From assembly GCA_026770025.1 (NCBI GenBank), contig JAMXDE010000029.1, forward strand, positions 620,001 to 684,000: a stretch of 64,000 nt of DNA, written 5' to 3'. Position numbers and translations under genes: made by a program. This DNA comes from Craspedostauros australis. Its lineage: Eukaryota; Bacillariophyta; Bacillariophyceae; Mastogloiales; Achnanthaceae. Positions 31,375-64,000 of the stretch are shown here, in pieces. The number at the start of each line of letters is the position of its first letter. Position 1 is the stretch's first letter. The notes beneath the pieces are model-generated. The model saw only the letters and a list, made by a program, of their open reading frames with translations. It made no database searches and was not told the DNA's origin.

Positions 31375-31920
31375 GATCGGAGGTTGGTTGTGTTTCTGAT
31401 TTGTGTGACAAAGGGCACCTCTGCTCAACTCAAGGCTCCATTGAAGTGCACTTGCGAGAGAGCAGCAGTGTTTGGCGCAATGGATGTGTGTACGTTGGCG
31501 TGATGTGCCATGGGGTGCTGCTGTGTGGTTGCCAAGGACATGGAAGATGTTGTGCTTCGCAACGAGCAAACAACCATTGCAGCAATTTCTTGCCGACGAC
31601 GCATTACGTGCGCTGGTGACGCGTGCTGGTGTCTTGCACACACACGTACAATGATTGTAATTCGTGGCCATCTGAACATCAGAAAAGAAATGTCAAGAGA
31701 TACTTGCATTGGCTTGAAGTGTTTTTTGTGTTCCTGTCCGTGGCGAAAGACACCGGCGCCCAAGAAGGGTGTACTGTTCCCCGTACAAACTGTAATAATG
31801 GCCGATGTCAAAGGGGCGTAACCAAGTTGCTGCAAGCGCGAAAAGTCATTCGCGGGATGGCGACAACGCGAAGGAGGGCCAATGTTCGTCTTCGGAACCA
31901 CAATGCGTAGGTACAGCATC
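31375..31920. other. Upstream region of partner gene
   Basis: Between the partner gene start and the 48-bp array. Presumed promoter; ORFs here are short and featureless. Confidence 0.35.
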
Positions 31921-32415
31921 GGTCCTTCGTTCACAAGGCACTTTTTACGCTTGCGTTGAAAGCGTACTTGGTCCTACGATGACAATGCACTTTTTGCGCT
32001 TCTGTTAAAGGCATAATCGGTCCTACGATCACAACGCACTTTTGCGCTTCTGGTAAAGGCATACTTGGTCCTACGATCACAACGCACTTTTGCGCTTCTG
32101 TTAAAGGCATACTTGGTCCTACGATGACAATGCACTTTTTGCGCTTCTGTTAAAGGCATAATCGGTCCTACGATCACAACGCACTTTTGCGCTTCTGGTA
32201 AAGGCATACTTGGTCCTATGATCACAACGCACTTTTGCGCTTCTGTTAAAGGCATAATCGGTCCTACGATCACAACGCACTTTTGCGCTTCTGGTAAAGG
32301 CATACTTGGTCCTATGATCATAACGCACTTTTGCGCTCCTGTTAAAGGCATAATCGGTCCTACGATCATAACGCACTTTTGCGCTTCTATTAAAGGCATA
32401 ATCGGTCCTCTTCAT
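31921..32415. repeat. 48-bp minisatellite with alternating A/B units
   Basis: About ten tandem units built on GGTCCTACGATCACAACGCA plus CTTTTGCGCTTCTGGTAAAGGCATA split over neighbouring positions. Two unit types alternate: one with ATAATCGG and CTTCTGTTAAAG, one with ATACTTGG and CTTCTGGTAAAG, so the true period is often a 96-bp dimer. Two units carry an extra T and shift by one base. The 48-bp length keeps one frame open on the minus strand (repeating MPLTEAQKC), but this is a by-product of period length, not a gene. Confidence 0.9.
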
Positions 32416-33000: not shown

Positions 33001-33775
33001 ACCGAGTCTATGTCAGTAGTGAATGCTCTATGAACATAAGCAGATGGCTTATGCGGATAAGAAATAATCTTATCTGGTAGTGAATGCTCTATGAACATAA
33101 GCAGATGGCTTATGCGGATAAGAAATAATCTTATCCGGTAGTGAATGCTCTATGAACATAAGCAGATGGCTTATACGGATAAGAAATAATCTTATCCGGT
33201 AGTGAATGCTCTATGAACCAAATGGAGGGCTTGTATGGATAAGAACTGATCTGTGCTATTGATAAATCTGTGCCATTGATAAACGCTCTTTCCACCCAAT
33301 GGAGGGCTTGTACGGATAAGACCGGATCTGTGTCATTATAAACGCTCTTTCCACCCAATGGAGGGCTTGTACGGATAAGACCGGATCTGTGTCATTATAA
33401 ACGCTCTTTCCACCCAATGGAGGGCTTGTATGGATAACAACTAATCTGCATCTGTAGTAAACGTTTTTCCACCAAATGGAGGGCTTGTATGGATAAGAAC
33501 TAATCTGTGCTGTTGATAAACGCTCTTTGAACCAAATGGAGGGCTTGTATGAATTGGAACGCTCCTGTGTCATTGATAAACGCTCTTTCCACTAAATGGA
33601 GGGCTTGTACGGACAAGAACGAATCTGTCCCTGTCATGAACGCCGTTGGAATCAAATGGAGGGCTTGTATGGATCGGAATGCTCCTGTGTCATTGATATA
33701 CTATGTTCCAACCAAATGGATGGCTTGCGCGGAAAGGGACTGAATATGTATCCATGTTATAAGCCTCGATTTGTC
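33001..33775. repeat. 58-61-bp minisatellite
   Basis: Thirteen or so tandem units. The first three steps are exactly 61 bp apart (GTGAATGCT at 33019, 33080, 33141, 33202), two are 58 bp (33283, 33341, 33399) and the remainder are 60 bp (33459, 33519, 33579, 33639, 33699). Shared core CAAATGGAGGGCTTGTA(T/C)GGATAAG. Most units keep CTTGTATGGATAAG or GCTTATGCGGATAAG. Confidence 0.9.
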
Positions 33776-39248: not shown

Positions 39249-41057
39249 TCACTCCTCGCCCTCGGCAGTGCCGTCAGTCTCAATCACTCTGGAGGATGTG
39301 ATGGAACGCACAAAAGCCAACAACGCGACGCGATCCATGTATGTATCCACGCGCGAAGTGCCCGCGCCTTCATCCACAACCTTGTACAACTCCATCATGG
39401 ACATGCCCTTGTACTCATCATCAACCTCATCACTCTCGGCTCCTCCACTGCACAGGACATGAATGCCTCCCATCAGTTGGGGCTGTAGAATCAGCTTGCT
39501 GAAATCTGGATGCGTGAATATATCTTTCTCACTTTCAGCTGCCAACCTCGTTGCGGCATCCTTCAACAGTACACAGTTGTGTTGATGAGCGAATATCAAC
39601 GTATCTGTCATGATGTCCTTGGTGAGATGCTTGCGGGCCAACTCCGCTTCAAGAACAAGCTTGAGTCGCCAGAAGCCGAACTCGTTGGCCACAAGGATCA
39701 GCTGGTGTAAATCGTCCCGTCCATTGAGGGTGGGGGTTGGCTGGTTTACGTCAACAGCATTGGCATTGTCATGAGCGTTGTCGTCAGTCTCAATGTTGTC
39801 AGGAACATCATCATCGAAGGATATCTCCCCCGTGTAGATGCATTGGAGGACATGCCGGACATGTTTGGGTTGATGATTGGGAAGAGGGACGGTTGTTTGG
39901 ATGGGGGCGGCGCCATCATCAGTTTCGTCACTAGTTTCGTCACCAGTTCCGTCATTCCAGCGTTGACGTTGGATTCCAGATTCGATCAATGTCTGAATGG
40001 ATGGAACGGTGACCATGAGGACTCCGGAGTTTGCCTTGATTGGTTGTTGTTCATCGCCTTGTCCACACAGGAAGGTGACGTCTGGCTTGGTCTCGGTAAG
40101 AACAGCGCTGCGACGATCTTGGCTGATGCTGATGTTGGTCGTTGTGCAGGTGGCTGGGCTGTTGTGCTTGGATGATGTTGTGATGGTGTTTGTGATGGTG
40201 TTTGTGCGGCGTTGTTTGTTCATTTGCAGCTGCAGTTTTGAGTTGCGGTGATTGAGACCAGTGATGATCGATCTCATCATCTTGATTTGATCGTCTGCTT
40301 TGATCATATCGAGGGGCGTTTGGTTCCTGTTGTTCTTGATATCGATATCGGCCTGGGTTGATTCGATGAGGTCCTCCACGCATTCAGAACTGCCGTTGTA
40401 GCATGCCCAATGAAGGGGAGTGTCACCCTGCAGGTTTTTTCTGTTGGCGTCAGCCTTGGTGGATTCAACAAGATACTTGACACACTCCAGATGACCGTTG
40501 ATGCATGCCCGATGAAGGGGGGTGTCACCATAGTTGTTTTTGCTGTTGATATCAGCCTTCATGGATTCAATGAGGTACATGGCACATTCCAGATGGCCAT
40601 AGGCGCATGCGTCATGTAGGGGAGTGGAACCTTCCATGTCTTTGCAGTCGACATCGGCCTTTGTTGATTCAATGAGGTACTCCACGCATTCAGAACGGCC
40701 TTGGTAGCATGCCCGATGAAGGGGAGTGTCACCATTCGTATTTTTGACGTTGACATCTGCCTGGCATGATTCAATGAGGTACTTGACACATTCCAATTGG
40801 CCGTTGCCGCATACCCAATGTAGGGGAGTGAAACCATGGTTGTTTTTGCTGTTGATATCATCCCCAGTTGATTCAATGAGGTACTTGGCATAATCAAGAT
40901 GACCGTTGGTGCATGCGTAATGAAGGGGAGTGCAACCATATTCATCTGTAACCCAGTTGGTATCACATCCTTCATGCTGCTTGTTCCATTCCTTCAACAC
41001 GGATTGATCACCTGCCTTGGCAGCAGCAATGAGTTGTTGGTTCGAAACGGTCGGCAT
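39249..41057 (-). CDS. Ankyrin-repeat BTB/POZ protein
   Basis: A 602-residue soluble protein. Residues ~35-275 hold seven ankyrin repeats (repeated xTPLHxACxNGHLECVKYLIES). They are unusually uniform, which suggests recent tandem expansion. A BTB/POZ-like domain follows at about 325-480: KPDVTFLCG, a Thr/Asp-rich inserted loop, RHVLQCIYTGEIS, then LHQLILVANEFGFWRLKLVLE and a BACK-like helical part (HLTKDIMTDTLIFAHQHNC). The domain order resembles ankyrin-BTB adaptors of Cullin-3 ubiquitin ligases, which is inference here. Single exon, starting MPTVSNQQLIAAAKAGD. Confidence 0.85.
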   Translation of the reverse strand: MPTVSNQQLIAAAKAGDQSVLKEWNKQHEGCDTNWVTDEYGCTPLHYACTNGHLDYAKYLIESTGDDINSKNNHGFTPLHWVCGNGQLECVKYLIESCQADVNVKNTNGDTPLHRACYQGRSECVEYLIESTKADVDCKDMEGSTPLHDACAYGHLECAMYLIESMKADINSKNNYGDTPLHRACINGHLECVKYLVESTKADANRKNLQGDTPLHWACYNGSSECVEDLIESTQADIDIKNNRNQTPLDMIKADDQIKMMRSIITGLNHRNSKLQLQMNKQRRTNTITNTITTSSKHNSPATCTTTNISISQDRRSAVLTETKPDVTFLCGQGDEQQPIKANSGVLMVTVPSIQTLIESGIQRQRWNDGTGDETSDETDDGAAPIQTTVPLPNHQPKHVRHVLQCIYTGEISFDDDVPDNIETDDNAHDNANAVDVNQPTPTLNGRDDLHQLILVANEFGFWRLKLVLEAELARKHLTKDIMTDTLIFAHQHNCVLLKDAATRLAAESEKDIFTHPDFSKLILQPQLMGGIHVLCSGGAESDEVDDEYKGMSMMELYKVVDEGAGTSRVDTYMDRVALLAFVRSITSSRVIETDGTAEGEE

Positions 41058-41624
41058 GTTGAGATGGTGGTCGAAGATTGTTGGATGATGGTTTAGATGG
41101 ATACCTCCTGGACGGCTGTTGGATGATCGGTTGAGTGTTTTATGGTATCGTATCGTGCCCTCGGATGTTCCAATTCCACCACGAGTCTCGACTTTGGCTT
41201 ACATCGCATGGCTTGTTGTGGTCTTGTTTGCGTGGTCGTCTCTCGCTTTCCTCGCTCTCTCTGGCTTTCTCTCGGTTGCGTCCTCTCTCCTTCTGTCGCT
41301 TCCTTTGTTGGGCTCCATCACACGATCTCCACCCCTTCACCGTGGCCTGTTTCGGTACGAGTGTGCGTGTGCACCATGCATGCGAGCTTCTCGTGGAGGG
41401 AGTGCCAACGGCGTGGACCGCAGATCCTCATCGTGTTCTTGGGGATTGTTGCGCCAAGTGTGGAGTGTAGTATCGTCGCAATAGGTCATATTGTACGTGC
41501 CAACGAAACGAAACGAAACGAAACAGAGAGCGAGAGCTCTCTGCAAGATCACTTTCGCGGATGGCAAGGACAGCAGCGAGAACACTCCGAGCGACATGAT
41601 GAGAGTGAAGAGCGGAGAGACAAA
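41058..41624. promoter_or_regulatory. Region between ANK-BTB start and Harbinger copy 2
   Basis: Presumed promoter of the ankyrin-BTB gene plus the left target flank of the transposon. A pentanucleotide AACGA run lies at about 41503-41523. Bases 41622-41624 (AAA) form the left target duplication. Confidence 0.4.
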
Positions 41625-45224: not shown

Positions 45225-45226
45225 TA

Positions 45227-45276
45227 CTACCTCCAGGTCGCAGTTGATGCACTCACGATAACACTAGTTGTGGAGT
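45227..45276 (+). repeat. Mariner TIR, left (50 bp)
   Basis: Matches the reverse complement of 54780-54829 except at the second base. Confidence 0.92.
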
Positions 45277-45980
45277 TTTGGCCCCTTGTTGTCACTGGTT
45301 TGCTTGCTTTTGGGAGAAACGGCGATTGGATATTTAGAGCTATTGTGTGTTTGCTCTCGCTGATCCGTCTTCTACGTCACAGGGAACGTATTCCACGTCA
45401 TGAGAAACGAGTCACAACAGAGGAAGAGACATCGTGTGACTCTTCCTCCGCAAGACAAGATGATGACTGCGCGCGGCGACAACAGAATGTGCCAGGCCAG
45501 GACAGCCAACAACACTCCACGTTGACCAGTCTCACAATGGAAACCAGCAACATCCAATCGTCTCGGAATACAACGAAGCGCATTGGCAATCTGTACGACG
45601 CAGACGACAGTGCTTCGCCAATCACCACAACATCGTCTTCACCTCGGCTGCCAATCCTGTGAATGATGCATGCACAGCTCAGCCAATCCACATTCTTGCC
45701 ACTGTTGCTGTTTCCATTTTTCTTCTCCGATAACATGCGGTGCGCACATGATCAACGTGGTACGGTATGCATCCTGCGCAACCGTGCAGCACGATCCTCC
45801 TGCATGAACGCCAAGGCGCAAGGGACGACATCAACACAACCGAAAGTACCGATCCAGCCACGAGTGTGAAGGAGCCTCGAAGCAAATACGAGCAATAGTA
45901 AACCGCTTGTCCAAATTCGAGAGGAAAGAAACAGCATTCCAGCAAACCACAACCAAGCAAAGATCACGTGGAAACCGAAG

Positions 45981-48703
45981 ATGCTCAACTTCAAGGCAGT
46001 TACCATCACGGCGATCTTGCTCGCCAAATGCAAGACGATCGATGCCATCCTTCGCGGCCATAGATTGATTGACCCAACCAACGAACTTCATGTTGCGATG
46101 CAGGCAACCAGACTGCTGAAGGGCGACGGCGGTTTCATTCCAAAGAACGTCAAGGGTAACAAACAGACGGGAGCACCGTCCAACAATCCAAGCAGCAATC
46201 CCAGTGTGGCACCAACCAGTTCGCCTACCAGCTCTCCTACATTGGCACCAACTGCGTTGGCCTGAATAATGACGACAACACCGACTTCTACACCAACCTT
46301 GCCACCAACTGGGGCACCAACTTCAAGGCCAACTGGGCGGCCAGTTGCCTTGCCGACCAGCAATCCAACCCTGAGGCCTACCTCATCACCGACTGACCAG
46401 CCAACAGGCGGAGCAACCAGCATGCCGACATCAGGGCCTACATCTGCACCGACAACCATCTCGTTTGCATTTGATTCCAGCATCTCCGTGGCCTGCGAGC
46501 CAGATGTTGCGCCGCCATGCTTTCTGCCGGAGGCATCCGAGCCAAAGACCATCATCTGCAATCCATCCAAGACATCGTACCGCAAGGCCGTCACTGCTGT
46601 TCGAAGCACACCAGGATTGCAGAATTACTTTGCATGCGCTGGCCTCTTGACCGAGGGGGATGCGCACAAGCTATTCAACCGATATGCGTCCAGCCCCTTG
46701 CTAGCTGAGGAGCTGAAGCTATTGTCCGCCGCCGGCACCACTCTGCTCACAGCTCTCGGTGGCGAGGACATCTACTACATGTGCCAGGACGCTGGGGCTC
46801 CAAGCTGTGCAGAGAAGTATCACTGTACCAGCGCCGACGGTTACAGTTTCATGACCATTGCCACCACTGCCTGCATTGGGTCTGGATCTTGCGACAGGAT
46901 GGGACGAAACACATTGGTCCTGGCTTCATCCTGTACCAGCAAAGGGGTATGCGCCGGCATGAACTCTCTTTATGTTTCCAATTGCTATGGTCCTCACCCA
47001 ACATACGGTGTCACCTTCATTGGTCAACTGGCCTGCACTGATTATCTTTCCTGCGTCCTTGCTGGCACATACTCCTACAGAGACGCCATCATACAAAGCG
47101 GCGCCTGCGTTGGACCCTACGCCTGTGCGAGCGTTGGCTACCGCGTTGAACAGTACGGGCCCAGCCGTTCCCAGAGCCACGTCAGAATTGGGTTCAACGC
47201 ATGCCTTGGTGAATATGCATGCACCGCAGCACATGCGAGCGGTTACTACGACTGCACATGCACATCGTTGCCATCACCTGCGAAGATTCAGGGCAGCTTG
47301 AGCATCGGCGACAATGCCTGCGCCGCAGCCTACGCTTGCCCGGGATTGGGATTCGGTGACTCAGTGACAACTGACATCATTGTGCCAGACTATGGCTGTG
47401 ACAGCAGCGGCGCATGCTACGAATGCATGACAAAAACCAACTGCGACAGCGACGAAGTCTTCATTATCTACGATGCTGCCGTCGCCTGCCCCAAAGACGT
47501 CGATGGCGACCCAACCAGTGAAAAGGGTCGATCAATTCTGCATCAACAAAGACCAACGCCCAACAGATTGCCCAACTTTCGCCCCCTTCTCCGCTGGCAA
47601 GCGATACCCCAACGATGATTCCGACAGAGCAGCCATCCGATCTGTCAACTTTTGTTCCAACAAACTCCCCAACCATCAACAAGACCACCCTGCAGACCCT
47701 TTGCTTGAATGAGGCTGGGGAGGTTACTGCGGGCTTCACCTCCAGACAAGTCGTCCTCTGCGATGATGATGTGGGCACATGCGCACAATTCGTCAACAAC
47801 AACGAGTCTCTCCCAACGAACAAGGACAGGTTCGTGAAAAGCATCTTCGGATGCGATGACGACCAAGGCAGCCGGACGTCGCAGCAACAGGCGCAGGTAC
47901 GATTTGATCGCATCAAGAATGACCCCCAAGCAATCGCAGCCATCCTCACTGCTCTCGAAGGCGATGGCATCCTTCTCACTGCGAACGCCGCAAGCCTATC
48001 CACGAGATGCGGTGCTGTGGGCGGGGCCTGCCGCTGAGGAACTCTCGGTTGGACTCTCAGGGGCGACATCATCATCACCCTGGACTCATGTGCAAGTGAT
48101 AGTTCCTGCGAAGAGGTTTCGAAGGATGCCATCATCCTCAGCAGCTGTCTGGGACCAAAATCCTGCAAGAATCTTGGATCTTTTTCCAGCCCTCCCAGTG
48201 CCACGGCCACCATTGGCTACCAGATCATCGGGCCAGCCGCATGAACCAGCACAAACAGCTGCGAGAATCTTGGGCAGAACATCTATGGTAACATCTGGAC
48301 CCAACACGCAGGATGAAATGGCGGGGACGGCTGCAAAGGCCTTGGAATTTGCGCCGACCAGTCTCCCAGTATCGCCACACCTACGCTTGCCAACATCGAC
48401 GTGGGGATGAACGCTTGTGAGGGACAACGCGCTAGTCAGAATGTTCACGCTGACCCGTTCAAGACTCTCGGTTGTATCACCATCGGCAGTGGCACATGCT
48501 TGTCACAAGACAGCTGTAACGGTGTTGCAAACTCCAACTTGGCGGTTGATGATCTGGTCGTGGCGGCGAACACCTGCGCGGCTCCAAGCAACTGTCAGGA
48601 CTGCATGGCGACAGACATGTGCAGCGGCTCTCCTGGCTGGACCTACACCATCGACAGCCCATCCAACGACTGCCCTGGACAAAATAACGATGCATGCTCT
48701 TGA
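45981..48703 (+). pseudogene. Secreted PT-repeat Cys-rich surface protein, relic inside mariner
   Basis: Begins with a signal-peptide-like segment (MLNFKAVTITAILLAKCKTIDA) and a propeptide-like stretch, then a stalk of PTxxPT repeats (VAPTSSPTSSPTLAPT; GAPTSRPTGRPVALPT). A Cys-rich ectodomain with regularly spaced Cys pairs follows (TACIGSGSCDRMG, GACVGPYACASVG, NACLGEYACTAAHA, NACAAAYACPGLG), then a second PT linker near 47615 and a second Cys-rich module ending NDCPGQNNDACS. Such stalked Cys-rich proteins are common in diatoms and relatives as wall or surface proteins. Lesions: TGA at 46263-46265 within the stalk, a frameshift near 47500, and further frame changes at about 48037 and 48240-48400. 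Repeats of the ectodomain resemble each other, so internal duplication preceded decay. Confidence 0.75.
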
Positions 48704-49389
48704 AAAATGAAATGGCTGACCGCACTCTCAGGGCGCGAACAGGAGTGGGAGTACAAACATCACAACGTATCCACATGTACGCCCATGCTCATACGGTCGC
48801 ATCTTCCGCAGCGGCAAGACAGCATGGATGCGATCCATATTCAGAACGAATGGCTCAACTCAACTCCATCGTTGCATATGGCACGATGATCGAAGAATAG
48901 AATACATGTTACAATACAGTCATGGAACAATCGTTTGCATCCTGTGCTGTGCTGCGCCTTGCCAGTTGTGCATTCTCGTACTTCCATGTGCTAGTATAGC
49001 ATGATATGGTACCTTTGCCCATGACTTCAAGGGAGCATATCCGAAGATGAACCACACAACTTGACTACAGTTTCAACCACTCCGTCCAGACATCCATACG
49101 AGTGCACTTGCGTTCTTGTCGTACAACTCGTCGAGTATTCTAAACTTGTCTTGTTCGAGGCCAGCTCAGCGAGGAAACGTTATGTGCGAACTAAAACGAA
49201 GACTCGGTGATGCCACGTTTGGTTACCCAGAACGTCTGTATCTGCAGAAGGGGGCATCCTGCGTGTTCGTCTTCAGCACGCAGACGACGGAATAGCTCAT
49301 CGAATGTAACATATTATAGGAGCTGCACTAGCACATCACAACATAGCATAGTATAGCATATGAGCATGGTATGGTGTGGATTCGTTGCG

Positions 49390-49415
49390 CTCTACTCTAC
49401 TCTACTCTACTCTAC
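49390..49415. repeat. CTCTA pentanucleotide microsatellite
   Basis: Five tandem copies of TCTAC/CTCTA. Confidence 0.85.
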
Positions 49416-49878
49416 CAATACATGACGATTGTGCTAGTGGCAGCGCCGTCGGCAGGGCACGAGCAGAGATGAATGATCAGAGGATGCATCGTTGGTGCTC
49501 CAGTGACGAGTACAGACGTTTGGACTTGATGGCAGCAACGATCGCGAGGGTTGCACATGTGTGATGAAGAGAAAGCGGAATACTGGCATGGCACGATGTG
49601 GTACAGATGTACGAGTGCGGTACCAACCAAGAGGAGGCTTTGCCATTCGATTGGTTTGTGCGACACACACCGATTGTGCTGGCGCTCCGATCGACGCAGT
49701 TGAGGCCTTGGAGCGTTTTTGTGTGTGGTTCGGATGGAAATTTTCCGACCAGAACGGCACAACACAACGTGCCGGCTCCACGACGCGATGGCTCCACGAC
49801 GCACACCATTCACGACACAAAAATACGGTCCGCGTCACACAATTCACACCACTCGTCACAAAACACAAAACAAACATC

Positions 49879-49965
49879 ACACACCACACCACACCACACC
49901 ACACCACACCACACCACACCACACCACACCACACCACACCACACACCACACCACACACCACACAT
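49879..49965. repeat. ACACC pentanucleotide array
   Basis: About sixteen copies of ACACC, grading into ACACACC and ACATC variants at the right edge. It lies just beyond the transposase 3' end on its downstream side. Confidence 0.9.
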
Positions 49966-50067
49966 CACACATCACAATCCTCCATGCCATCAAACAGACG
50001 ATGTGCACACAGGCACTCCAATCACAGGTGTGCCTATAACATATAATACTACTACTTTGATTTGCAG

Positions 50068-52614
50068 CTACATCTCTGCTGTGTTGGTATCCTGCTCTGC
50101 TTTGCTGTGATGCTCGTCCTTGCCAACGAACATGGCCACTTCGAATGTGTTCATGGTGGGTGCTGCTTTGGCTTTGCTGTTGTTGTTGCAAGGCTCAATG
50201 ATGTCGGCTTTGCTCTTGCTGGGTTGCTTCTTTCTCTTCTCGTCTTTCTTCTGTTGCTCAGCCTCCTCGTTGGCTCTGGTTGTCGCAACGATTTGCTTCT
50301 CCAGCAACGGAATGAGGCTGCTGGTTGTTGGCAGATTCGTTTTCAGGCACTGCAGTCCACTGACAGCCATCACCTTGAGCGCATCATCGTACATACCTTT
50401 GATGTCGGGCTTGGCGTATTTGAAGTCAGCTGATTTGCCTTTGTTGTCTGTTGCAGTTGGTTTGTTGGTGGTCGCGCGGGTAGCCTCATCCTCCTCCAAC
50501 ACGAAGTCCGTGTGAGACACGGTAACGCCGATCTTGTTGCCCTCTTTGTCGAATTCCGTGGACGTTTGTTTCCGCACATTCATGTGCAGTCCCTTGCGCT
50601 CCGTCACAAATTCGTCACCTCCTTTTGCAGCACAAATTGCGTAGGCAATCTGATGGTGGCGAACATACGCGCTAGCCACCTTGTCCAGCTTGAATTGTTT
50701 CCAACAGGTTCCACAAGCATTCCACAATGCCTCAGTGGTAAGCAATCGGCTTCCATGGTGCTCACCTTGATACGCTGACACGTGTTTTGACATCGCTGGG
50801 AATATCGCATCGTCTTTCACATTCGTGATGGGAGAATTTGGTGGTTGCAGTCGTAAGTGCCATCCGCGACTGTCGAACTCCTTGTTGATGAATCTAAGTA
50901 GCTCCGTGTCTCTGTGTGGCCCTGCGCCATCCATCTGGTACCGAATCACCACGTTCTTTCCGGTTTCGGCCTTGATTTTGCTGGCGAGCGAATCCAGTGC
51001 GGGGAGTTCTTTTTCGCGGAAGAATTTCTTGAGGCTGTACTTCGGCTTGGGCTTAACACGATGACCATCTGTTTCCTTGCTGCCCGTGATTTCCAGTGGT
51101 TGGAAGTACAGTTCACCCTTCTTGCGAGAGATTTTCTCGGGATCAGGAAGGTGCTTGTACTTGGTCGGCGAGACCCAAGTTCGCTTGTACGTGGTCTTCT
51201 GCGCTCGGACCATGCGCCCAACACGTTCGAAGTTCACCTTATACGCCTTTCCTCCTTTCGCAAAACAGTTATTTGTTGGGGCAAATGCTGTTGATGCAAT
51301 TGCCATGGTCTTGTCAATGTGACACTTGTGATGCACAGTCTGCTTCACAGGCTTAACTCCCATCTGGGGCACATGTTTCAGATGCATGCAAGCGACAATG
51401 GAGTAGAACCACTTTTCGTCCATGTGGACAAGGACAACTTGCGTATTCTCAAACAGCTCAGCTGATTCCCAGAACACACAGAAGTCCTGAGCCCAGATGT
51501 CGCGCTTTGCTGTAGTGGTGCCATTGATCAGAGGGAGTATTGTTGTAGAACGGTACTCACTGCCTTCCAATCCCATGACGAATTTGCGAATACACTTCGG
51601 ACCAACGACTTGCGGGTTTCCGCTGCCTGCCAGTTTCCATGCAATTCTGTCCCACGAGATTGCGCCATTGCACCGTCGCAACACATCCTGGAGCTCAAAT
51701 TGCAGGAAGGGACCACGCTCCAACCACAAATCAGCCAGCGCTTTTGCGGATGCCAGCTCTTCCGGCGAAGCAGAGGCATAGGCAGAAGCAATTTCGTCGT
51801 TCTTGAACTGTTGCTCTGGATGTCGAAGACGTAGTTGTTTCTCAAAGGCTGCGCGCTGCGTGAAGTACTGTCGTTGCTTGATGGGGCAGGTGAAGATGCT
51901 GCTGCCTGCGTCACTTCGCTTCTTGCATTCGAGCGTCTCCGTTTGGAATTTCACAATGTTGCGCCCCACTGTGGTGCGGTTGATACCCCATGCATGGGCG
52001 ATCAACTCTGCATGTTCAGGAATCCCACCCAAATTGAAATAGAGAACAGTGTAGTTCCGATTGTCTTCTTTGTCAAGGCGCTTGCTAGGATTACCAGGCT
52101 TAGCAATACTATGCCCTCCATCCTTTCGCAACCATCCTTTTGTTTTCGCGCCTTTCTTCATCTGGTTCGTGAGCTGGGCGATTGCTGTTGCTTTCTGACG
52201 CCGCGAGACCTCGAGAAAAGCGGCGATTTTGGCTTCTTGCGATTCTGTGGTAGTTGGGGATGGTGTGGGGGGCTTAGCCTTGTTGTTGACACGCGTGGCA
52301 GCGACGGAGTGATGCTGGGGAGAAAGGAGGGAAGGCTTAGCAAGGCCTCCAGCAGTGCGAGTCCGTGCGAAGGTAGCGAGGCTGTGTGGTGTGCACAGAT
52401 CCTCGCGAACAACATACATTCGGCTCTGCCCCATCACTGGGGTCACCATGACCATTGCCACCTCTCCTGGTGCAAGAGGCCCATTGCGTTTGACTGTAGC
52501 GCCGTCCGTGGTCTGCTTCATTGCAAAATCAACATGACATACGCCCAGGTCATGGACCCTGCCGCTTGAGCTCTGGTGGGATGCCACCTTCACACAGTCA
52601 CCAGCGCGCAGCAT
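50068..52614 (-). CDS. Tc1/mariner-type DDD transposase
   Basis: An 848-residue uninterrupted ORF. Residues 1-190 are a polar N-terminal extension. A helix-turn-helix that would read the TIR follows at about 197-223 (PEHAELIAHAWGINRTTVGRN). The catalytic domain carries Asp399 in VLVHMDEKWFY, Asp562 in VIRYQMDGAGPHRD and Asp601/602 in PPNSPITNVKDDAIFPAMS, a spacing of 38-39 residues like the DD39D mariners. Plant-type elements have PNSPDxN and LDLGFF here; this protein has PITN and KDDAIF. The Lys/Glu-rich C-terminal ~200 residues are extra. At 848 residues it is much longer than the ~350-500 usual for mariners. It acts in the nucleus on the 50-bp TIRs around it. Confidence 0.9.
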   Translation of the reverse strand: MLRAGDCVKVASHQSSSGRVHDLGVCHVDFAMKQTTDGATVKRNGPLAPGEVAMVMVTPVMGQSRMYVVREDLCTPHSLATFARTRTAGGLAKPSLLSPQHHSVAATRVNNKAKPPTPSPTTTESQEAKIAAFLEVSRRQKATAIAQLTNQMKKGAKTKGWLRKDGGHSIAKPGNPSKRLDKEDNRNYTVLYFNLGGIPEHAELIAHAWGINRTTVGRNIVKFQTETLECKKRSDAGSSIFTCPIKQRQYFTQRAAFEKQLRLRHPEQQFKNDEIASAYASASPEELASAKALADLWLERGPFLQFELQDVLRRCNGAISWDRIAWKLAGSGNPQVVGPKCIRKFVMGLEGSEYRSTTILPLINGTTTAKRDIWAQDFCVFWESAELFENTQVVLVHMDEKWFYSIVACMHLKHVPQMGVKPVKQTVHHKCHIDKTMAIASTAFAPTNNCFAKGGKAYKVNFERVGRMVRAQKTTYKRTWVSPTKYKHLPDPEKISRKKGELYFQPLEITGSKETDGHRVKPKPKYSLKKFFREKELPALDSLASKIKAETGKNVVIRYQMDGAGPHRDTELLRFINKEFDSRGWHLRLQPPNSPITNVKDDAIFPAMSKHVSAYQGEHHGSRLLTTEALWNACGTCWKQFKLDKVASAYVRHHQIAYAICAAKGGDEFVTERKGLHMNVRKQTSTEFDKEGNKIGVTVSHTDFVLEEDEATRATTNKPTATDNKGKSADFKYAKPDIKGMYDDALKVMAVSGLQCLKTNLPTTSSLIPLLEKQIVATTRANEEAEQQKKDEKRKKQPSKSKADIIEPCNNNSKAKAAPTMNTFEVAMFVGKDEHHSKAEQDTNTAEM

Positions 52615-54779
52615 GCTTGCGAGGTGAAGAGTTCAGTGGTTGCGGGATGATACAACTACGTCCAATGTTGGTGAAGGTTGATAGAACTGTGTTATTGTGT
52701 GTGCTTGTTTGAAGTGATGGTTTACAAAGTTAAGTTTGTTGAGATTATGAGCTCATCAATAAGAGCTCATCATCTTCCTGTTTTCTACTTCTTGGCTCCA
52801 CTAATGGTGCTATTCACCATTGTCCATCGTGTTGTAACCATGCCAAACTTCTGGTTACTCTTGCTAATTAGTGTATCTGTGTCCAAACATGTGCAATGAC
52901 ACATGTTTGGAGGTCTAATAGAGTCTCTTTGATCCTCTTGGATCATCTTCCTAATTTTGTCTTGGGTCTGAAACCCGCATCACATTTTCCGAATTCTATC
53001 GAGTAGTTTTCTTGGATCTTTCGAAACGAAGTGTGACTGACACAAAGGACTCAAAACTCGAACAACGATTGGATTGATTCAGCACACATGGTCTAACAAC
53101 AAGGGAACTCATGGTGAATACTAGCTGTGTGTCAATAGAGGTTGCAAGCTGATTGTACGAGATTGGCTGGTCGCGACGCACACCAGGCACACAAGGAGAA
53201 CAGCACAGCACAGCACAGCACCAGTCATTGACGCGCAGCACGGCGCAGCGCACCACAGAACGGCATGAACAACACAGGAGGATGGTCACAAGGTGCCTTG
53301 TACCATCCACTCTTTCCTTTGTGGGAAGGTCACAGTCATTCTACATTCTGTGTAAGCTATGACTACAAGCAGCAGAGAATCAACAGCAGCTCGTCGCAGA
53401 TGCGCAATGTTTCCGTTGTCCATTTTGTGAGGAGGATTTTGTGCCTTCGCTGTGTCGTTGTGGAATGGAGGTGCAATTCGGGACTCGCAAAGTGTTCTCA
53501 TTGATGGGCGCATTTGGTAGAATTGTGATTAATCTCCATGGCCCCCAACAGCAAAAACTGTTTGAGAACACCAAACACAACACAACAACACGACAATGGA
53601 GAAACACAACAAAACTCCACAAGCGCTGTCGAATGGCATCGACGGCACTGCCACAACCAGCGGTCCAGTGCAAGATCTGAGGGCATAGGCGGAACCGCCA
53701 TGGAAAGTTTGGTGGATGAGCGAGAGCGGGATGTCATCTTGGCTTATTTGGGGCCGTGGCAGGCCCACGCGCACACGGCACGATTCGGAGGAAAATATGC
53801 TCATTGGATATGGTCTCTGCCTGGAATGCACAGGCCATTCCAACGACCATGGATGGGCAAGACGTATCCAAGAGGATACGGTGAAGATGCACACGAAGTT
53901 TGAGGGTCGGGGGTGGCCTGGAAGGTGCCCTCCGCAAGAAACAAGTGGCGGGCAAGAGTTTTTTGGCGGGTGGCGGCGGACACATCACGTGACTTCGCTG
54001 GTGATGGGTGCCATTGAAAAGTCACCCATATCGCCAAACCACCCATTCAAGATGTGTTAGAAATCAACTCAAGATGGCCATGGCGAAGTATCCTGCGCAG
54101 ATACGGTCTGGAAGAGGCTGCAGCCTGGGATGCACACGAAAGGGATTTTTTTGGGTGTCGGAAAAACATCATGATGGCATCATCACATGGAGGTGCACCT
54201 TTGGAGGTATGAGCGCCCCACCCATTCTGAACACATCAGTGTGTCGCCAGAGAATGTGGGAACGCATGAGGGGCATGTGAAGGAGCTGCAAGGATCGTAT
54301 CGACGAGATACGGATCCAAATCCGAACGGCATCCGTGTCGGAATCGGGTGTTCGAAAATTCTGCGTTTCAGTGCAGGGACAGTTTGGAGTATGAGATGCG
54401 GCTATCTGCGCAGGATCTTCATGGAGTGGATAGATGGGGGGTATCCGGAGCCAGTGTGGTGCGCAGATTGTGAAAATGCCAGGGATGATAATGATGATCA
54501 TGGGTGCTGAAGGTAGGGCAGCATGGTGCCATCGAGAATTTTTTGCACCCACCACCTGACAGACAGCAAGCCAAAACGACATTAAAAATAAAGTTCATAC
54601 AAATTTAACTAAGATATTCAGAATAAACGATAGCCAAGCGTCCGAATGAACTGTCTAGTTTTAATTTTAAATGGTGCGTTGTTGAGATATAACATCATAA
54701 GCAGTTGTTTGGATGGTTTTGGGTGTGCTCTAATTTAGTCTACTTTATCACGACTCATCACGAGTAAAACTCAAAAAAC
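52615..54779. other. Mariner right arm, possible eroded ORFs
   Basis: Upstream of the transposase start, so its promoter lies here. Plus-strand open stretches at 53538-53903, 53716-54060 and 54187-54510 are 107-121 codons each in changing frames. They contain Trp/Gly-rich segments and a CADCENARDD end, but no recognisable domain; they could be a second captured gene relic or chance. The last 200 bases are AT-rich. Confidence 0.3.
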
Positions 54780-54829
54780 ACTCCACAACTAGTGTTATCG
54801 TGAGTGCATCAACTGCGACCTGGAGGTCG
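54780..54829 (-). repeat. Mariner TIR, right (50 bp)
   Basis: Reverse complement of 45227-45276 with one mismatch; followed by TA at 54830-54831. Confidence 0.92.
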
Positions 54830-54831
54830 TA

Positions 54832-55559: not shown

Positions 55560-56520
55560 CAACTAGGGCGTGTTTGACAACACGAACGGACTGTCCGATC
55601 CTGCTGGGTCTTTTCACGACATTCCAAGTGACTGGCGAACGCTGCTGCGGAATGTGACATTGCGATTCTCTCGGTTTCGACTCACCAAGTGGTATTCGAC
55701 TGTGCTGGCAAATTGTCCGATACTGCATGGTCTGTTCGCAACATTCCAAGTCACCAGCAAACACCGCGGTGGAATGCGACATTGCAATTTGCTCGTTCTC
55801 GACTCCACAGGTTGTATTCGACCGTACCGGCAAATTGTTCGATACTGCATGGTCTGTTCGCAACATTCCAAGTCACCGGCAAACACCGCGGTGGAATGCG
55901 AAGTTGCGCTTTGCTCGTTCTCGACTCCACAGGTTGTATTCGACCGTACCGGCAAATTGTTCGATACTGCATGGTCTGTTCGCAACATTCCAAGTCACTG
56001 GCAAACACTGCTGTGGAATGTGACATTGCGCTTTGCTCGTTCTCAACTCCACAGGTTGTATTCGACTGTACCGGCAAATTGTTCGACACTGCATGGTCTG
56101 TTCGCAACATTCCAAGTCACCGGCAAACACCGCTGTGGAATGCGAAGTTGCGCTTTGCTCGTTCTCGACTCCACAGGTTGTATTCGACCACACCAGCCAA
56201 TTGTCCGGTACTACCTGGTCTATTTGCGACGTTCCGTGACATTCGCACCCAATACTCCAGGATGCAACATTGCAAATTGCTCGTTCTTGACTCACCAGGT
56301 TGTATTCGACCACTCCAATAGATTTTCCGATACTACATGGTCTGTTTGCGACATTCCGTGCCATTCACACCCAATGCTGCAGGATGTGACATTGCGATTT
56401 GCTCGTTCTTGACTCACCAGGTTGTATTCGACCACTCCAATAGATTTTCCAAAACTACATGGTCTGTTGGCAACATTCCAAGTCATTCACCACCAATGGT
56501 GTGGAGTGTAAAGTTGCGAT
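55560..56520. repeat. 122-bp satellite, eight units
   Basis: The landmark GATACTGCATGG or its variants falls at 55597, 55719, 55841, 55963, 56085, 56207, 56329 and 56451, every step exactly 122 bp. Central units are nearly identical; the outer units diverge, and the last three share CTCACCAGGTTGTATTCGAC. As 122 is not divisible by three, open frames across it are artefacts. Confidence 0.93.
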
Positions 56521-60070: not shown

Positions 60071-61911
60071 AAAGAGAACGTGGGCCGATCGTGGCGGGAG
60101 AACACGGTGGGAAGCGAGGATCTTGGACTAGCACGACTGACGCATTTGGCGAATGATTGTTGTGACGAAAACAAACGCGGCGAACGCGACTGATCGTGAG
60201 AAACGACACGTATTTTATTCGAACGGTTCGTACAGTGTTTTTGTTGGTCCGACTTGTCGATTCTCGCTTCGTCGCGTTCGTTCGCGCCAAAATGTGCCAG
60301 ATCACGCCGAAATCGTCCATCGTTGGCCTCTTCCATGAGAAGGACGCATCCGCACCTAAACAGGAGATCCTTGCGCACTGACTCGCAACAACCATAGCTG
60401 CGAAAATGACACACCAACAGCGATGGTGCGACGGAGGGGACACCAAGATGAATGATGATCACAACCACAATTGCAATCACAAGCGCAATCGTCGCGAGCA
60501 ATTACGTGCATCCCATGAGAATTCTGCTTGGTGAAATGGCAGCTGGAGTACCTCACCTGAATGGTGCTGGAGATGCGTTGAATGAACGGAGGCAATGGTT
60601 TGGACGATCGTTCCCAACAAATGTGACCAGCGAGTCACCTACCCTCCTGATAATGGATGGGGAGGGGGAGATGACCCCAACTTCTACATGCCGGTACTCT
60701 GGTCACTCCATCACTTGTAGCTCGCACGGTGCCGATACATCGGTCGTGGTCGAAGAACAGTGGACACGTCCAACGGCCCATGGCAACGACGAAGGAGAAA
60801 CGAGAGACTCCACACCATCCACACCAGCGCATCTGCGAGGCAATCCACCCCAACAGTCATCAGACGTTTCATCGCCGTCGCTGCTGCTGCTGACCTCATC
60901 TCACTCTTGTGGCTAACGATGCCACCACCGTGCCTCAGTTTTTCCAACAAGATACATTCCGTGGGATTTCCTGTGAGAAACCTGCTCCTTGCTACGTGTA
61001 CCGGCACCAGGCATGAATGAGTTCGTACCATTCCGAACTGGTGCGTACGAGTTCGCGCCTCTCAGTGCATATCATAGCGGCGAACCATGACATGAGATGC
61101 GTGCCGCTGATTTGCGAGTCCGAGCATACCATCAACCTGTGTTGTGAATACCCATCCCTCTTCCCATCCGTCTGTCCGTAAATAGCTCACTCCACATCAG
61201 ACGCCACTTCTTCGCCTCCGCAGCATCATGAAGAGCACGCCAATGGTCGCAACGAGCATGCGTCAATGACAATACGCCCTGTCCAGCCGCTTCCCCCCCC
61301 CCCCCCCCCCCCCCCCGATCGTCCCAATTGGAGGAGGCTGCGGAACGTGCACCCAAGCACAAAGCACAATCGGTGTGATGATGATGCCAGCTTTTCCTCT
61401 GATTTCACTGGAATGGATTGCAACGTATTATAATACATTATATTACATGGAATACAATGACCACATTCTAAAATGGTATTCTCTTGTTTTGGTATCGAAG
61501 TCATGGAACGTGCCCGAGGGTAGTCGTACCCATTGTTCCCGCAAAGGCGTCGCCAATTGTTTTCGCGTGTGTGCGTGTTTGTTCGCGTGTGAACCCCAAA
61601 CTTGCCTCCGAGAACTTCGAGCCAAGAACACCACGACAGGCAGCACCACGAGGAAATTTGTCGAGGGTGTGGAATGCACACAAGTCCCCGTGTTGGTACC
61701 AAAGGTCTCATCAATCACGGAGTCAACTGACGTTGCTCCCCTTCGTCTTCTTCTTTGTCTGTGCCTCGCCTTTGACATTGCATTCCTGAAGCTCGCACAT
61801 CGCCTCGTGTTGACTTGACTTTCATTCTTTTCCGCATATTCCATTGTGTTATATTTCCAAAAGTCAAGCCAAAGCAGGGCAACACGGTGGGAAGTCCGTG
61901 CTGTCCACACC
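60071..61911. promoter_or_regulatory. Upstream region of RAD17
   Basis: Host DNA between the transposon and RAD17. A 154-codon plus ORF at 60452-60916 starts with a hydrophobic segment but is otherwise Ser/Thr-rich and unrecognised. A (C)24 homopolymer lies at 61293-61316. The rest shows only overlapping antisense ORFs. Confidence 0.4.
61293..61316. repeat. Poly-C run of 24
   Basis: Uninterrupted C homopolymer in non-coding DNA; its exact length may be unreliable in an assembly. Confidence 0.9.
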
Positions 61912-64000
61912 ATGAGCAACATCGAATGCGAAGACCCCCTCTCCGAGGATGACGACTTCGGTTTGCAGCGACGGCGCAAGACGCTGTGGAGGACGACGAG
62001 TCAGAGACAGCAACTGAGGAAGCGACGCTTGGCTCCGGACCGCTTGCGTTGGCCGCCACAGGACGGTTCGGCGAGTACTCACACAAGAGCTTCCGCAGTG
62101 TCGCAGACTCAAACACAGACGCAGTCCGACATGCCATCGATGGGGGACGCCCAAGCCACTGTCGACACCGCGACTCAGACGCCTACCGACTCGCCCAACA
62201 GCTGCACGTTTGGATCGCCCTCCTTGGACATTGATCCTGCAGCCTTGGAGGCCATGATGGTGCAGGTGGAAGCATCCATTCAGACCTCCAGCCAGACGCA
62301 GGATCAATCACCATCACGGACTGCTGCACAAAGGGTGAGCCCGAGGAAAGCATCACCCGGGAAGAAGAGAGCTTCGTCTCCACCTTCGAGTCAACACGCT
62401 GATTCAAAGAGGCGCAAGACAGTGGCATCTGCACAGAGCAACGCCGGGGATCACAACACAAGGAGGCAGCTTGATTTGCCCGTGCGAAACCACATCTCTC
62501 AGACGAAGGCGACATCGAAATCGAACACAGCCACAACCAGAGCCGCATCAACACGAACTTCATCCCCTGTTTCCGCCACCACGACGAATCGACGGACAGC
62601 AACCACAAGGGAGCACCGGAATGTCTCGTCTCAAAGCGCAAAGCAGCGGCGACCGCAGTCGCAGCCAAGGTCGCCACCAAAGGTGAGGAAGGAGAGCCGA
62701 GGCAAGCTGTCGCAAACACGCATCGATCAAAGACAGAAGAAAGAGCTGCAAAGACAAAAGCAAACGCAAGTGTGGCTAGATTGGCACAGGCCGACCACCA
62801 GCGCCGAACTTTGTGTGGCTCCCAAGAAGATAAAGGAGATACGCTCGTTCCTCGATGAATTTCGGAATGATCCAACCCACACTCATGCGAGGAGGTTGCT
62901 CATCCTGGTTGGAAGTCCTGGCATTGGCAAGTCCACTACCATCGACGTGCTTGCCAACGAATTGAACTTGGATGTGTGCAAGTGGACGGAGGACTTCACA
63001 GCTCAAACATGGTCGCGTGGTGACAACATCCTCACCATCGAAACCAAGACACCTTTGCAATCGTTTGAAGACTTTTTGCAAACTGCGGGGGCAGGGTATT
63101 CGTCTCTTGCATTGCAACTCACGACAAGGGGCACCAGCCGTACTACAGTTCCCACCACGGCCGCAGCGGTGGGTGGTGGCAAGAAAAGGCAGAGGATACA
63201 CTCAAACAACAGAAGGAAAACGCAGCAGCAGCAAAGACAACAGCGCCACCAACAAAAACTAATCCTGTTGGAGGATTGGCCCAACCTTCACAGCCCAGAC
63301 TCGCAGCAACGATTCCGTGACATCATGGACAGGCACGTGCGCACGTCGCAAGTCCCAACGGTCATGATCTTCAGCGACGTGTCGGAAGGCAAGCACCGTC
63401 CGGAGGATCTGGAACGTCTCATCACCCCAACCACGCTCTACAACTCGCAAGTCACATGCATCCTGCGTATCAATCCAGTCACGGCCACCAAGATGAAGAA
63501 GCTGTTGCAAAACATCGTTCGAATACGCGGCCATCAGCACACGTTATCCACTGCATTCTTCGAATCGGTACATCTGCAGAGCCATGGCGATATGCGTCAC
63601 GCTGTCTTGTCGCTGCAGCTGGAGTGCACGGGAGAAGATCATGGCAGAACATCCAAGGCATGCACTCGCACTAGTACGACGAAGGAACGCGACACCAAGT
63701 TATCCACCTTCCATGCGCTCGGCAAGGTCCTCTACGCCAAACGCAAATCGAAGAACGAGCTGGATTTCGATCCCGATCGCACCTTGGAAAGCAGCGACAT
63801 GGGTCTGAGCGGTTCGCTGTCGTTCCTGGAATACCATTGCGTCGACATGTACAAGGACATCGGCGACCTCAGCGATGCGATGTCCCTGTACTCCGACACC
63901 GCCTACCTCCTGGATGGCGGGCACAACGTGGGCCGCAATTCCTCGATGGCCGATCGCATGTTCCCTGATGGGTATGTCGGTTCCATCGCCGGGCGTATCA
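61912..64000 (+). CDS. RAD17: RAD17, checkpoint clamp loader, 3' end outside window
   Basis: Open frame of 696 codons from ATG 61912 to the window edge with no stop and no intron. The first ~280 residues are disordered, Ser/Thr/Gln/Lys-rich, with SQ/TQ pairs. The AAA+ part starts with VWLDWHRPTTSAELCV, the N-terminal signature of RAD17/RFC large subunits, then Walker A LVGSPGIGKSTT (334-342), Walker B region KLILLEDWPN (~449-457, ED as in RAD17), MIFSDVSEG, and GDMRHAVLSLQL (sensor-type helix). RAD17-specific TFHALGKVLYAKRKS and EYHCVDMYKDIGDLSDA follow. A ~45-residue Gly/Arg/Gln-rich insertion separates Walker A from B. With RFC2-5 it loads the 9-1-1 clamp at damaged DNA to activate the ATR checkpoint. 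Confidence 0.93.
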   Translation, partial: MSNIECEDPLSEDDDFGLQRRRKTLWRTTSQRQQLRKRRLAPDRLRWPPQDGSASTHTRASAVSQTQTQTQSDMPSMGDAQATVDTATQTPTDSPNSCTFGSPSLDIDPAALEAMMVQVEASIQTSSQTQDQSPSRTAAQRVSPRKASPGKKRASSPPSSQHADSKRRKTVASAQSNAGDHNTRRQLDLPVRNHISQTKATSKSNTATTRAASTRTSSPVSATTTNRRTATTREHRNVSSQSAKQRRPQSQPRSPPKVRKESRGKLSQTRIDQRQKKELQRQKQTQVWLDWHRPTTSAELCVAPKKIKEIRSFLDEFRNDPTHTHARRLLILVGSPGIGKSTTIDVLANELNLDVCKWTEDFTAQTWSRGDNILTIETKTPLQSFEDFLQTAGAGYSSLALQLTTRGTSRTTVPTTAAAVGGGKKRQRIHSNNRRKTQQQQRQQRHQQKLILLEDWPNLHSPDSQQRFRDIMDRHVRTSQVPTVMIFSDVSEGKHRPEDLERLITPTTLYNSQVTCILRINPVTATKMKKLLQNIVRIRGHQHTLSTAFFESVHLQSHGDMRHAVLSLQLECTGEDHGRTSKACTRTSTTKERDTKLSTFHALGKVLYAKRKSKNELDFDPDRTLESSDMGLSGSLSFLEYHCVDMYKDIGDLSDAMSLYSDTAYLLDGGHNVGRNSSMADRMFPDGYVGSIAGRI

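What the first reader, a model, noticed from the sequence alone, without database searches (positions are those of the whole stretch)
45227..54829. 9.6-kb Tc1/mariner with 50-bp TIRs nested in a satellite
TA duplication, one-mismatch 50-bp TIRs and an uninterrupted 848-residue mariner transposase define it. Deleting it restores a 193-bp satellite step against 194-198 bp in neighbours, an internal control for the boundaries. Both its length and its transposase are far above the norm for the superfamily.
Basis: seen in the sequence. Interest (0 to 1): 0.78.

Follow-up and report, generated by a model that had tools for sequence, protein, structure and literature searches.

The report
Jumping gene overwriting stolen host genes
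A large DNA transposon in this eukaryotic genome is real, young and present in dozens of copies, and it is large because one spot inside it has repeatedly been overwritten with pieces of the host's own genes.

Summary
Window 45227-54829 is one DNA transposon: 50-bp TIRs (one mismatch), TA on both sides, inserted in a ~195-bp satellite. Twenty aligned copies at 19 sites are 9.45-9.67 kb and differ by 0-1.0%. At least 94 transposase loci exist in this 74.8-Mb genome, 73 full-length without stops. The "two chance elements" alternative fails.

The length has an unexpected cause. The core is about 5.4 kb; 3.9 kb of the window copy matches free-standing host loci. Copies with the same core carry different fillers in one slot: a NAGS-like gene, a PCMT gene piece ending at a splice-donor-like site, a PT-repeat/Cys-rich gene, and an unidentified fourth. 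The window copy is layered: PT gene, then PCMT-type residue, both inside NAGS remnants. Its cargo is broken; transposase dN/dS is 0.35-0.51.

Best reading: an autonomous, Tc1/mariner-like element whose slot is serially overwritten with host genes, probably by template switching (mechanism inferred). "Tc1/mariner" rests on TA targets and a DD38/39D-like motif; no sequence profile matched and no structure could be run. New variant of a known kind.

The parts
45225..45226 (.). TA target duplication, left
   Evidence: TA on both sides in 20 of 20 copies
45227..45276 (+). left terminal inverted repeat
   Evidence: 49 of 50 match to the right TIR; 88 genome hits of its inner 47 bp at up to 3 mismatches, control 0
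45227..45472 (.). left core, shared by the copies carrying different fillers
   Evidence: alignment with L029, L038 and host L037, which starts matching at 45473
45473..45603 (+). remnant of the 5' part of a captured NAGS-like host gene
   Evidence: 75.6% to free-standing locus L037 over 45473-45607
45604..48866 (+). captured PT-repeat/Cys-rich host gene with flanks, broken (TGA at host codon 107, two 1-bp insertions, further stops)
   Evidence: 88.7% and 91.4% to L035, which holds an open 919-codon frame; breaks
48867..49196 (+). about 35 unassigned bp, then residue shared with the PCMT-type copies (L038); its host origin was not tested
   Evidence: 90.6% to L038 over 48904-49306; junction alignment
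49197..49661 (+). remnant of the 3' part and downstream flank of the NAGS-like gene, with an internal deletion of about 190 bp at 49304/49305
   Evidence: 84.3% and 80.9% to L037; junction alignments
49662..54829 (.). right core, including transposase gene and a 2.2-kb leader
   Evidence: L029 match 49300-54824 at 91.5%; end of L037 homology at about 49661
50068..52614 (-). transposase gene, 848 aa
   Evidence: open in 19 of 20 young copies; dN/dS 0.35-0.51 in 15 of 15 pairs of six diverged copies
54780..54829 (-). right terminal inverted repeat
   Evidence: 40 scored matches for the last 100 bp
54830..54831 (.). TA target duplication, right

Best explanation
An autonomous cut-and-paste DNA transposon family, most likely a diverged Tc1/mariner lineage, with a ~5.4-kb core and one internal slot on the 3' side of its transposase gene. 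The slot has been overwritten several times with host gene DNA. SHOWN by sequence: the boundaries and TA sites; young multi-copy spread; purifying selection on the transposase; four different fillers between the same core sequences; in the window copy, a PT gene and a PCMT-type residue lying inside NAGS remnants; one shared pair of PT junctions; cargo types that do not follow the transposase tree in the 14 copies tested. INFERRED: the order NAGS, PCMT-type, PT; that fillers enter as genomic DNA when a broken or half-copied element is repaired and synthesis switches to a host gene and back; that slots are also exchanged between element copies; that the cargo is a tolerated passenger in the young copies; and that the transposase, not a relative, moves the element.
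For: 20 copies, 19 sites, TA each side. 94 transposase loci, 73 full-length without stop. Fillers: NAGS-like, PCMT with exon end at GTAAGT, PT gene, a fourth in L039. All 13 full-length PCMT-type slots lie next to a full-length stop-free transposase. Layers in the window. Same PT junctions in 23 of 23 PT-type copies compared. dN/dS. Tree.
Against: No profile or PDB sequence identifies the transposase and no fold was obtained. Clear microhomology at the capture junctions was not found; the PT-left junction looks blunt, and one internal deletion shows 3 bp at most. 34 of 94 loci have none of the three known fillers; one of them was read and held the fourth, 33 are unread. Free-standing relatives are 82-91% identical, so they need not be the true donors. 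Cargo dN/dS below 1 (0.58-0.76) leaves room for past function. Cargo-label shuffles were as low as the tree's 3 changes in 500 of 500, so clustering of cargo on the tree is untested with so few copies.
Confidence: 0.75

Rival explanations
1. The cargo genes are functional payload kept by selection for host or element.
For: Cargo dN/dS is below 1 (0.60-0.76 among four element copies); older copies keep long frames, 617 codons in L029 and 621 in L034.
Against: The early stop is in 20 of 20 young copies, two 1-bp insertions in 8 of 8 examined; L029's NAGS frame leaves the host frame near residue 514; fillers differ between copies.
Confidence: 0.1
2. Fillers arrived as nested transposons or as retrocopies rather than by template switching.
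For: Junctions lack clear microhomology; copies 17-19 kb long exist that may hold nested insertions.
Against: Captured pieces include flanks beyond the reading frames; the PCMT piece runs past the exon end into a GTAAGT site; new fillers replace part of the old one instead of only adding to it. No terminal repeats or target duplications were seen by eye at the PT borders; no dedicated search for them was made.
Confidence: 0.15
3. The transposase belongs to another TA-targeting DDE superfamily, not Tc1/mariner.
For: No Pfam, NCBIfam, PHROGs or PDB sequence match; 848 aa is long; D1-D2 spacer is 162 residues.
Against: TA at 20 of 20 copies; HMDEKW, QMDGAGPH and QPPNSPITNVKDD hold aspartates invariant in six copies, 38 or 39 residues between the second and third; these motifs recall plant DD39D elements (recalled; group described in PMC7325037).
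Confidence: 0.2
4. One reading: TIRs of a short element flank unrelated DNA by chance.
For: None found.
Against: 20 full-length copies at 19 sites, each with TA on both sides.
Confidence: 0.01

Closest known systems
PlantMar / DD39D Tc1/mariner elements of plants and some oomycetes (PMC7325037, passages)
   Same: TA target and a DD38/39D-like spacing here; TIRs at both ends
   Different: That paper gives 2-6 kb and short TIRs; here 9.6 kb, 50-bp TIRs, 848-aa transposase, host-gene slot; no profile match
Pack-TYPE elements including Pack-Mariner of plants (PMC8903248, passages)
   Same: TIR elements holding captured host gene pieces
   Different: Defined there as non-autonomous; here most loci keep a full-length transposase, and the captured DNA is serially replaced in one slot
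Pack-TIRs of animals (PMC8277862, abstract and passages)
   Same: Host DNA between TIRs; template switching proposed
   Different: There microhomology is present at one breakpoint or more in 190 cases (67.6%); here clear microhomology was not found; here filler layers are nested and the element keeps its transposase
TBE elements of Oxytricha (PMC4724952, passages)
   Same: Tc1/mariner elements with further ORFs
   Different: TBEs have a set of three ORFs; here the extra content differs between copies and is host-derived
Turmoil-1 transduplication in C. elegans (PMC2572040, start of abstract in the listing only)
   Same: Host coding sequence taken into a transposable element
   Different: There inside the inverted repeats; here in an internal slot in several rounds

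Membership tests
Tc1/mariner superfamily | TA target-site duplication | tested here: met
   20 of 20 copies, 19 sites
Tc1/mariner superfamily | terminal inverted repeats at both ends | tested here: met
   49 of 50; 88 genome hits
Tc1/mariner superfamily | DDD/E catalytic triad with 34-39 residue second spacer | tested here: inconclusive
   D399, D562, D601, D602 invariant in six copies; second spacer 38 or 39; assignment of the catalytic residues is by recalled motif, not by structure
Tc1/mariner superfamily | recognisable by transposase profile or solved relative | tested here: inconclusive
   no transposase match in Pfam, NCBIfam, PHROGs or PDB sequences; one sub-threshold HTH_29 in 1 of 6 members (E 0.046); absence at this divergence does not exclude membership
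Tc1/mariner superfamily | RNase-H-like DDE fold | not tested
   Structure prediction answered 'busy' at all 21 tries; no job ran
Pack-TYPE transposon | host gene DNA captured between TIRs | tested here: met
   L035, L037 and the C2 locus match three fillers
Pack-TYPE transposon | non-autonomous, as PMC8903248 defines it | tested here: not met
   transposase frame open in 19 of 20 young copies, 73 of 94 loci full-length without stop; activity itself was not tested. It works like a Pack-TYPE element but is not one by that definition

The most novel reading that the evidence does not exclude
A self-mobile DNA transposon with a true cassette slot: one dispensable internal site that keeps being overwritten with new host genes, and whose content reassorts between transposase lineages by recombination among copies. 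The element would sample and redistribute host genes in successive layers and keep a readable record of past captures; 33 of the 94 known loci have slots not yet read and may hold more.
Probability: 0.4. Interest if true: 0.75.

Novelty: new variant of a known kind. Interest (0 to 1): 0.6.

Why it matters
Gene capture by TIR transposons is described mainly for non-autonomous elements. Here young copies with full-length transposases, older lineages, nested fillers and free-standing relatives of three fillers lie in one genome, so the order of captures can be read and the mechanism (template switching, insertion, exchange between copies) can be tested. It also warns annotators that NAGS-, PCMT- and PT-repeat-like genes in this genome include transposon-borne broken copies.

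Tried and rejected
Chance or composite element: rejected. Cargo as an original transposon gene: rejected, because fillers differ between copies and three match free-standing loci. Relatives of the transposase in viral contigs and bacterial/archaeal contigs: none confirmed. Superfamily by Pfam, NCBIfam, PHROGs or PDB sequence: no transposase hit. A second protein in the 2.2-kb leader: several frames open in some of seven copies, none judged convincing in all. It recalls a diatom repeat-protein family, which is recollection only. Naming the organism: not done; PT-rich proteins recall diatoms (recalled, no call).

Papers: 8 searches ran. None of the rows listed (20, 20, 20, 20, 12, 0, 12, 7) was by title or abstract start an autonomous Tc1/mariner with serially replaced host genes; this covers only the open library held and only the rows shown. 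Passages (not whole papers) were seen of PMC8903248, PMC7325037, PMC4724952, PMC8277862, PMC6431247 and PMC13317346.

Rows dropped before counts: PT list used 46 of 94 rows (75% identity or more; the 48 rows at 41-49% were taken as host family members); NAGS list 8 of 72 rows (the rest are second pieces, free-standing loci or left/right remnants); PCMT list 14 of 20 rows; four second pieces among the 57 rows. The 14.5-kb distance rule is mine. The 20-copy set leaves out L013 (right end not in the stretch fetched), the 17-19-kb and the ~7-kb copies. Cargo dN/dS used 8 of the 20 young copies plus L032-L034.
Full report
WHAT WAS CHECKED. The window is G000:C27:620001-684000 of an unnamed 74.8-Mb assembly of 90 contigs; I take it to be a eukaryote. 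The 50-bp inverted repeats at 45227-45276 and 54780-54829 match at 49 positions and are followed by unrelated sequence. TA flanks both ends. The 47-bp inner repeat is found 88 times at up to three mismatches, 44 per strand, and never when read backwards. I aligned 20 full copies: all are 9,449-9,667 bp, all carry TA on both sides, at 19 different sites, since L009 and L011 share flanks. Pairwise distance runs from 0 to 1.006%, median 0.44%. Leaving the element out lets the 194-bp satellite run across the junction, with anchor steps of 195, 196 and 194 bp, the last across the junction.

TRANSPOSASE. The 848-aa frame is open in 19 of the 20 young copies; L009 has a frameshift. Two protein searches give 94 distinct loci: 73 full-length without a stop, 15 with a stop, 8 partial, two of these in both classes. 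These are lower bounds, because only the best candidates are scored. Across six diverged copies dN/dS is 0.35-0.51 in all 15 pairs, so the protein has been under purifying selection. Three conserved stretches, HMDEKW, QMDGAGPH and QPPNSPITNVKDD, hold aspartates invariant in the six, with 38 or 39 residues between the second and third. That pattern recalls (recalled, not tested) the DD39D group of plants and oomycetes (PMC7325037, passages). No library or PDB sequence search recognises the protein as a transposase, and the structure server was busy at all 21 tries. Tc1/mariner is likely, not proven.

WHY IT IS SO LONG. Comparing copies shows a constant core (45227-45472 and 49662-54829, 5.4 kb) and a variable slot. 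In L029, L030 and L031 the slot holds a gene piece with an amino-acid-kinase match in L029 (PF00696, 3.9e-8). Its free-standing relative L037 has kinase and acetyltransferase domains in one frame, the architecture of N-acetylglutamate synthase (name recalled). In L038 and 12 further full-length places, eight of the 13 at 99-100% identity, the filler carries the first part of a PCMT gene (PF01135, 5e-8). That exon ends at a GTAAGT site. The profile match ends at model position 96-97 in these 13 copies, at 92 in a fourteenth (C9), and at 98 in the free-standing C2 locus, which matches the filler at 82-83%. In the window type the filler is a PT-repeat, Cys-rich gene, 88.7% identical to L035, where a 919-codon frame is open and no other transposon part was found in the 5 kb read. 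L039 holds a fourth, unrelated filler of about 1.37 kb between the same left core and NAGS 3' flank; no gene was identified. By a distance rule, 39 of the 94 transposase loci lie near PT, 13 near PCMT, 8 near NAGS and 34 near none of these; L039 belongs to one of the 34.

LAYERS. In the window copy the order is core, 131 bp of NAGS 5' sequence, the PT gene, about 35 unassigned bp, about 295 bp shared with the PCMT type (host origin not tested), the NAGS acetyltransferase tail and 3' flank with a deletion of about 190 bp, then core. The simplest order is NAGS first, PCMT-type next, PT last; L039, which has NAGS on both sides and no PCMT-type residue, would be an independent replacement. Identities to the free-standing relatives fit only loosely: 82-87% for NAGS, 82-83% for PCMT, 88.7-91.4% for PT.

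CARGO STATE. Read in the host frame, the PT cargo has an early TGA, a second TGA and two single-base insertions in 8 of 8 young copies examined, and two further stops in 7 of them; the early stop is in all 20. Older copies have fewer or other breaks: L034 has only one single-base insertion and no early stop. Cargo dN/dS is 0.60-0.76 among four element copies and 0.58-0.67 against the host gene, above the transposase values but below 1, so some past constraint is possible. I take the cargo to be a passenger in the young copies.

EXCHANGE BETWEEN COPIES. All 23 PT-type copies compared have both PT junctions at the same place, 43-50 of 50 and 58-60 of 60 letters alike, which points to one capture. 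On a tree of 14 transposases (11 PT, 3 NAGS) the types are interleaved: three changes, of which well-supported branches force two. Shuffled labels also give three in 500 of 500, so the tree shows only that the types are not two clades. Since the PT type has lost most of NAGS, NAGS cannot return by loss alone; slots must have moved between element lineages. This is an inference from few copies.

MECHANISM. Genomic pieces with flanks, and one with a splice-donor-like end, argue against retrocopies; replacement rather than addition argues against nested insertions. Template switching during repair of a broken or replicating element, as proposed for animal Pack-TIRs (PMC8277862, abstract and passages), fits the captures and the exchange. 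That paper reports microhomology at one or both breakpoints in two thirds of its cases; I found no clear microhomology at the PT-left junction and 3 bp at the internal deletion, so this step is inferred.

KNOWN OR NEW. Pack-Mariner elements in plants capture genes but Pack-TYPE elements are defined as non-autonomous (PMC8903248, passages). Plant and oomycete DD39D elements are given as 2-6 kb. Ciliate TBEs carry three ORFs. No autonomous, apparently Tc1/mariner-type element with a serially overwritten host-gene slot appeared in the rows listed by my 8 paper searches. I rate it a new variant of a known kind.

Noticed in passing
G000 C75:2641-22014 and C61:7980-17787 (L001-L004, L009-L011): Two copies of the element stand head to head 51 bp apart on C75, and the same arrangement recurs on C61; L009, L010 and L011 show no differences from each other.
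   Followed up: partly
L023 and L024 (C20): Two copies without a single difference, at different TA sites about 9.7 kb apart.
   Followed up: no
G000 C54, C42, C17, C16, C5: Pairs of matching ends lie 17-19 kb apart instead of 9.6 kb; nested insertions or larger fillers, not read.
   Followed up: no
G000 genome-wide: The PT-repeat/Cys-rich gene has 1371 first-look candidates; 48 of the 94 scored rows are 41-49% identical, mostly in long frames, so it seems to be a very large gene family. Three rows on C73 are spaced 8,715 bp apart, like a tandem array.
   Followed up: no
window 52632-54829: The 2.2-kb leader upstream of the transposase is about 90-96% alike in its first 1.3 kb across seven copies, and several frames are open in some copies; function unclear.
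   Followed up: partly
window 331-1557 (-), 39252-41198 (-), 61819-63999 (+): Copia-type gag with zinc knuckle; ankyrin-repeat protein with a BTB match; Rad17-type AAA protein.
   Followed up: no
window 31918-32409, 33016-33727, 55592-56485: Further tandem arrays with units of 48, 59-61 and 122 bp.
   Followed up: no
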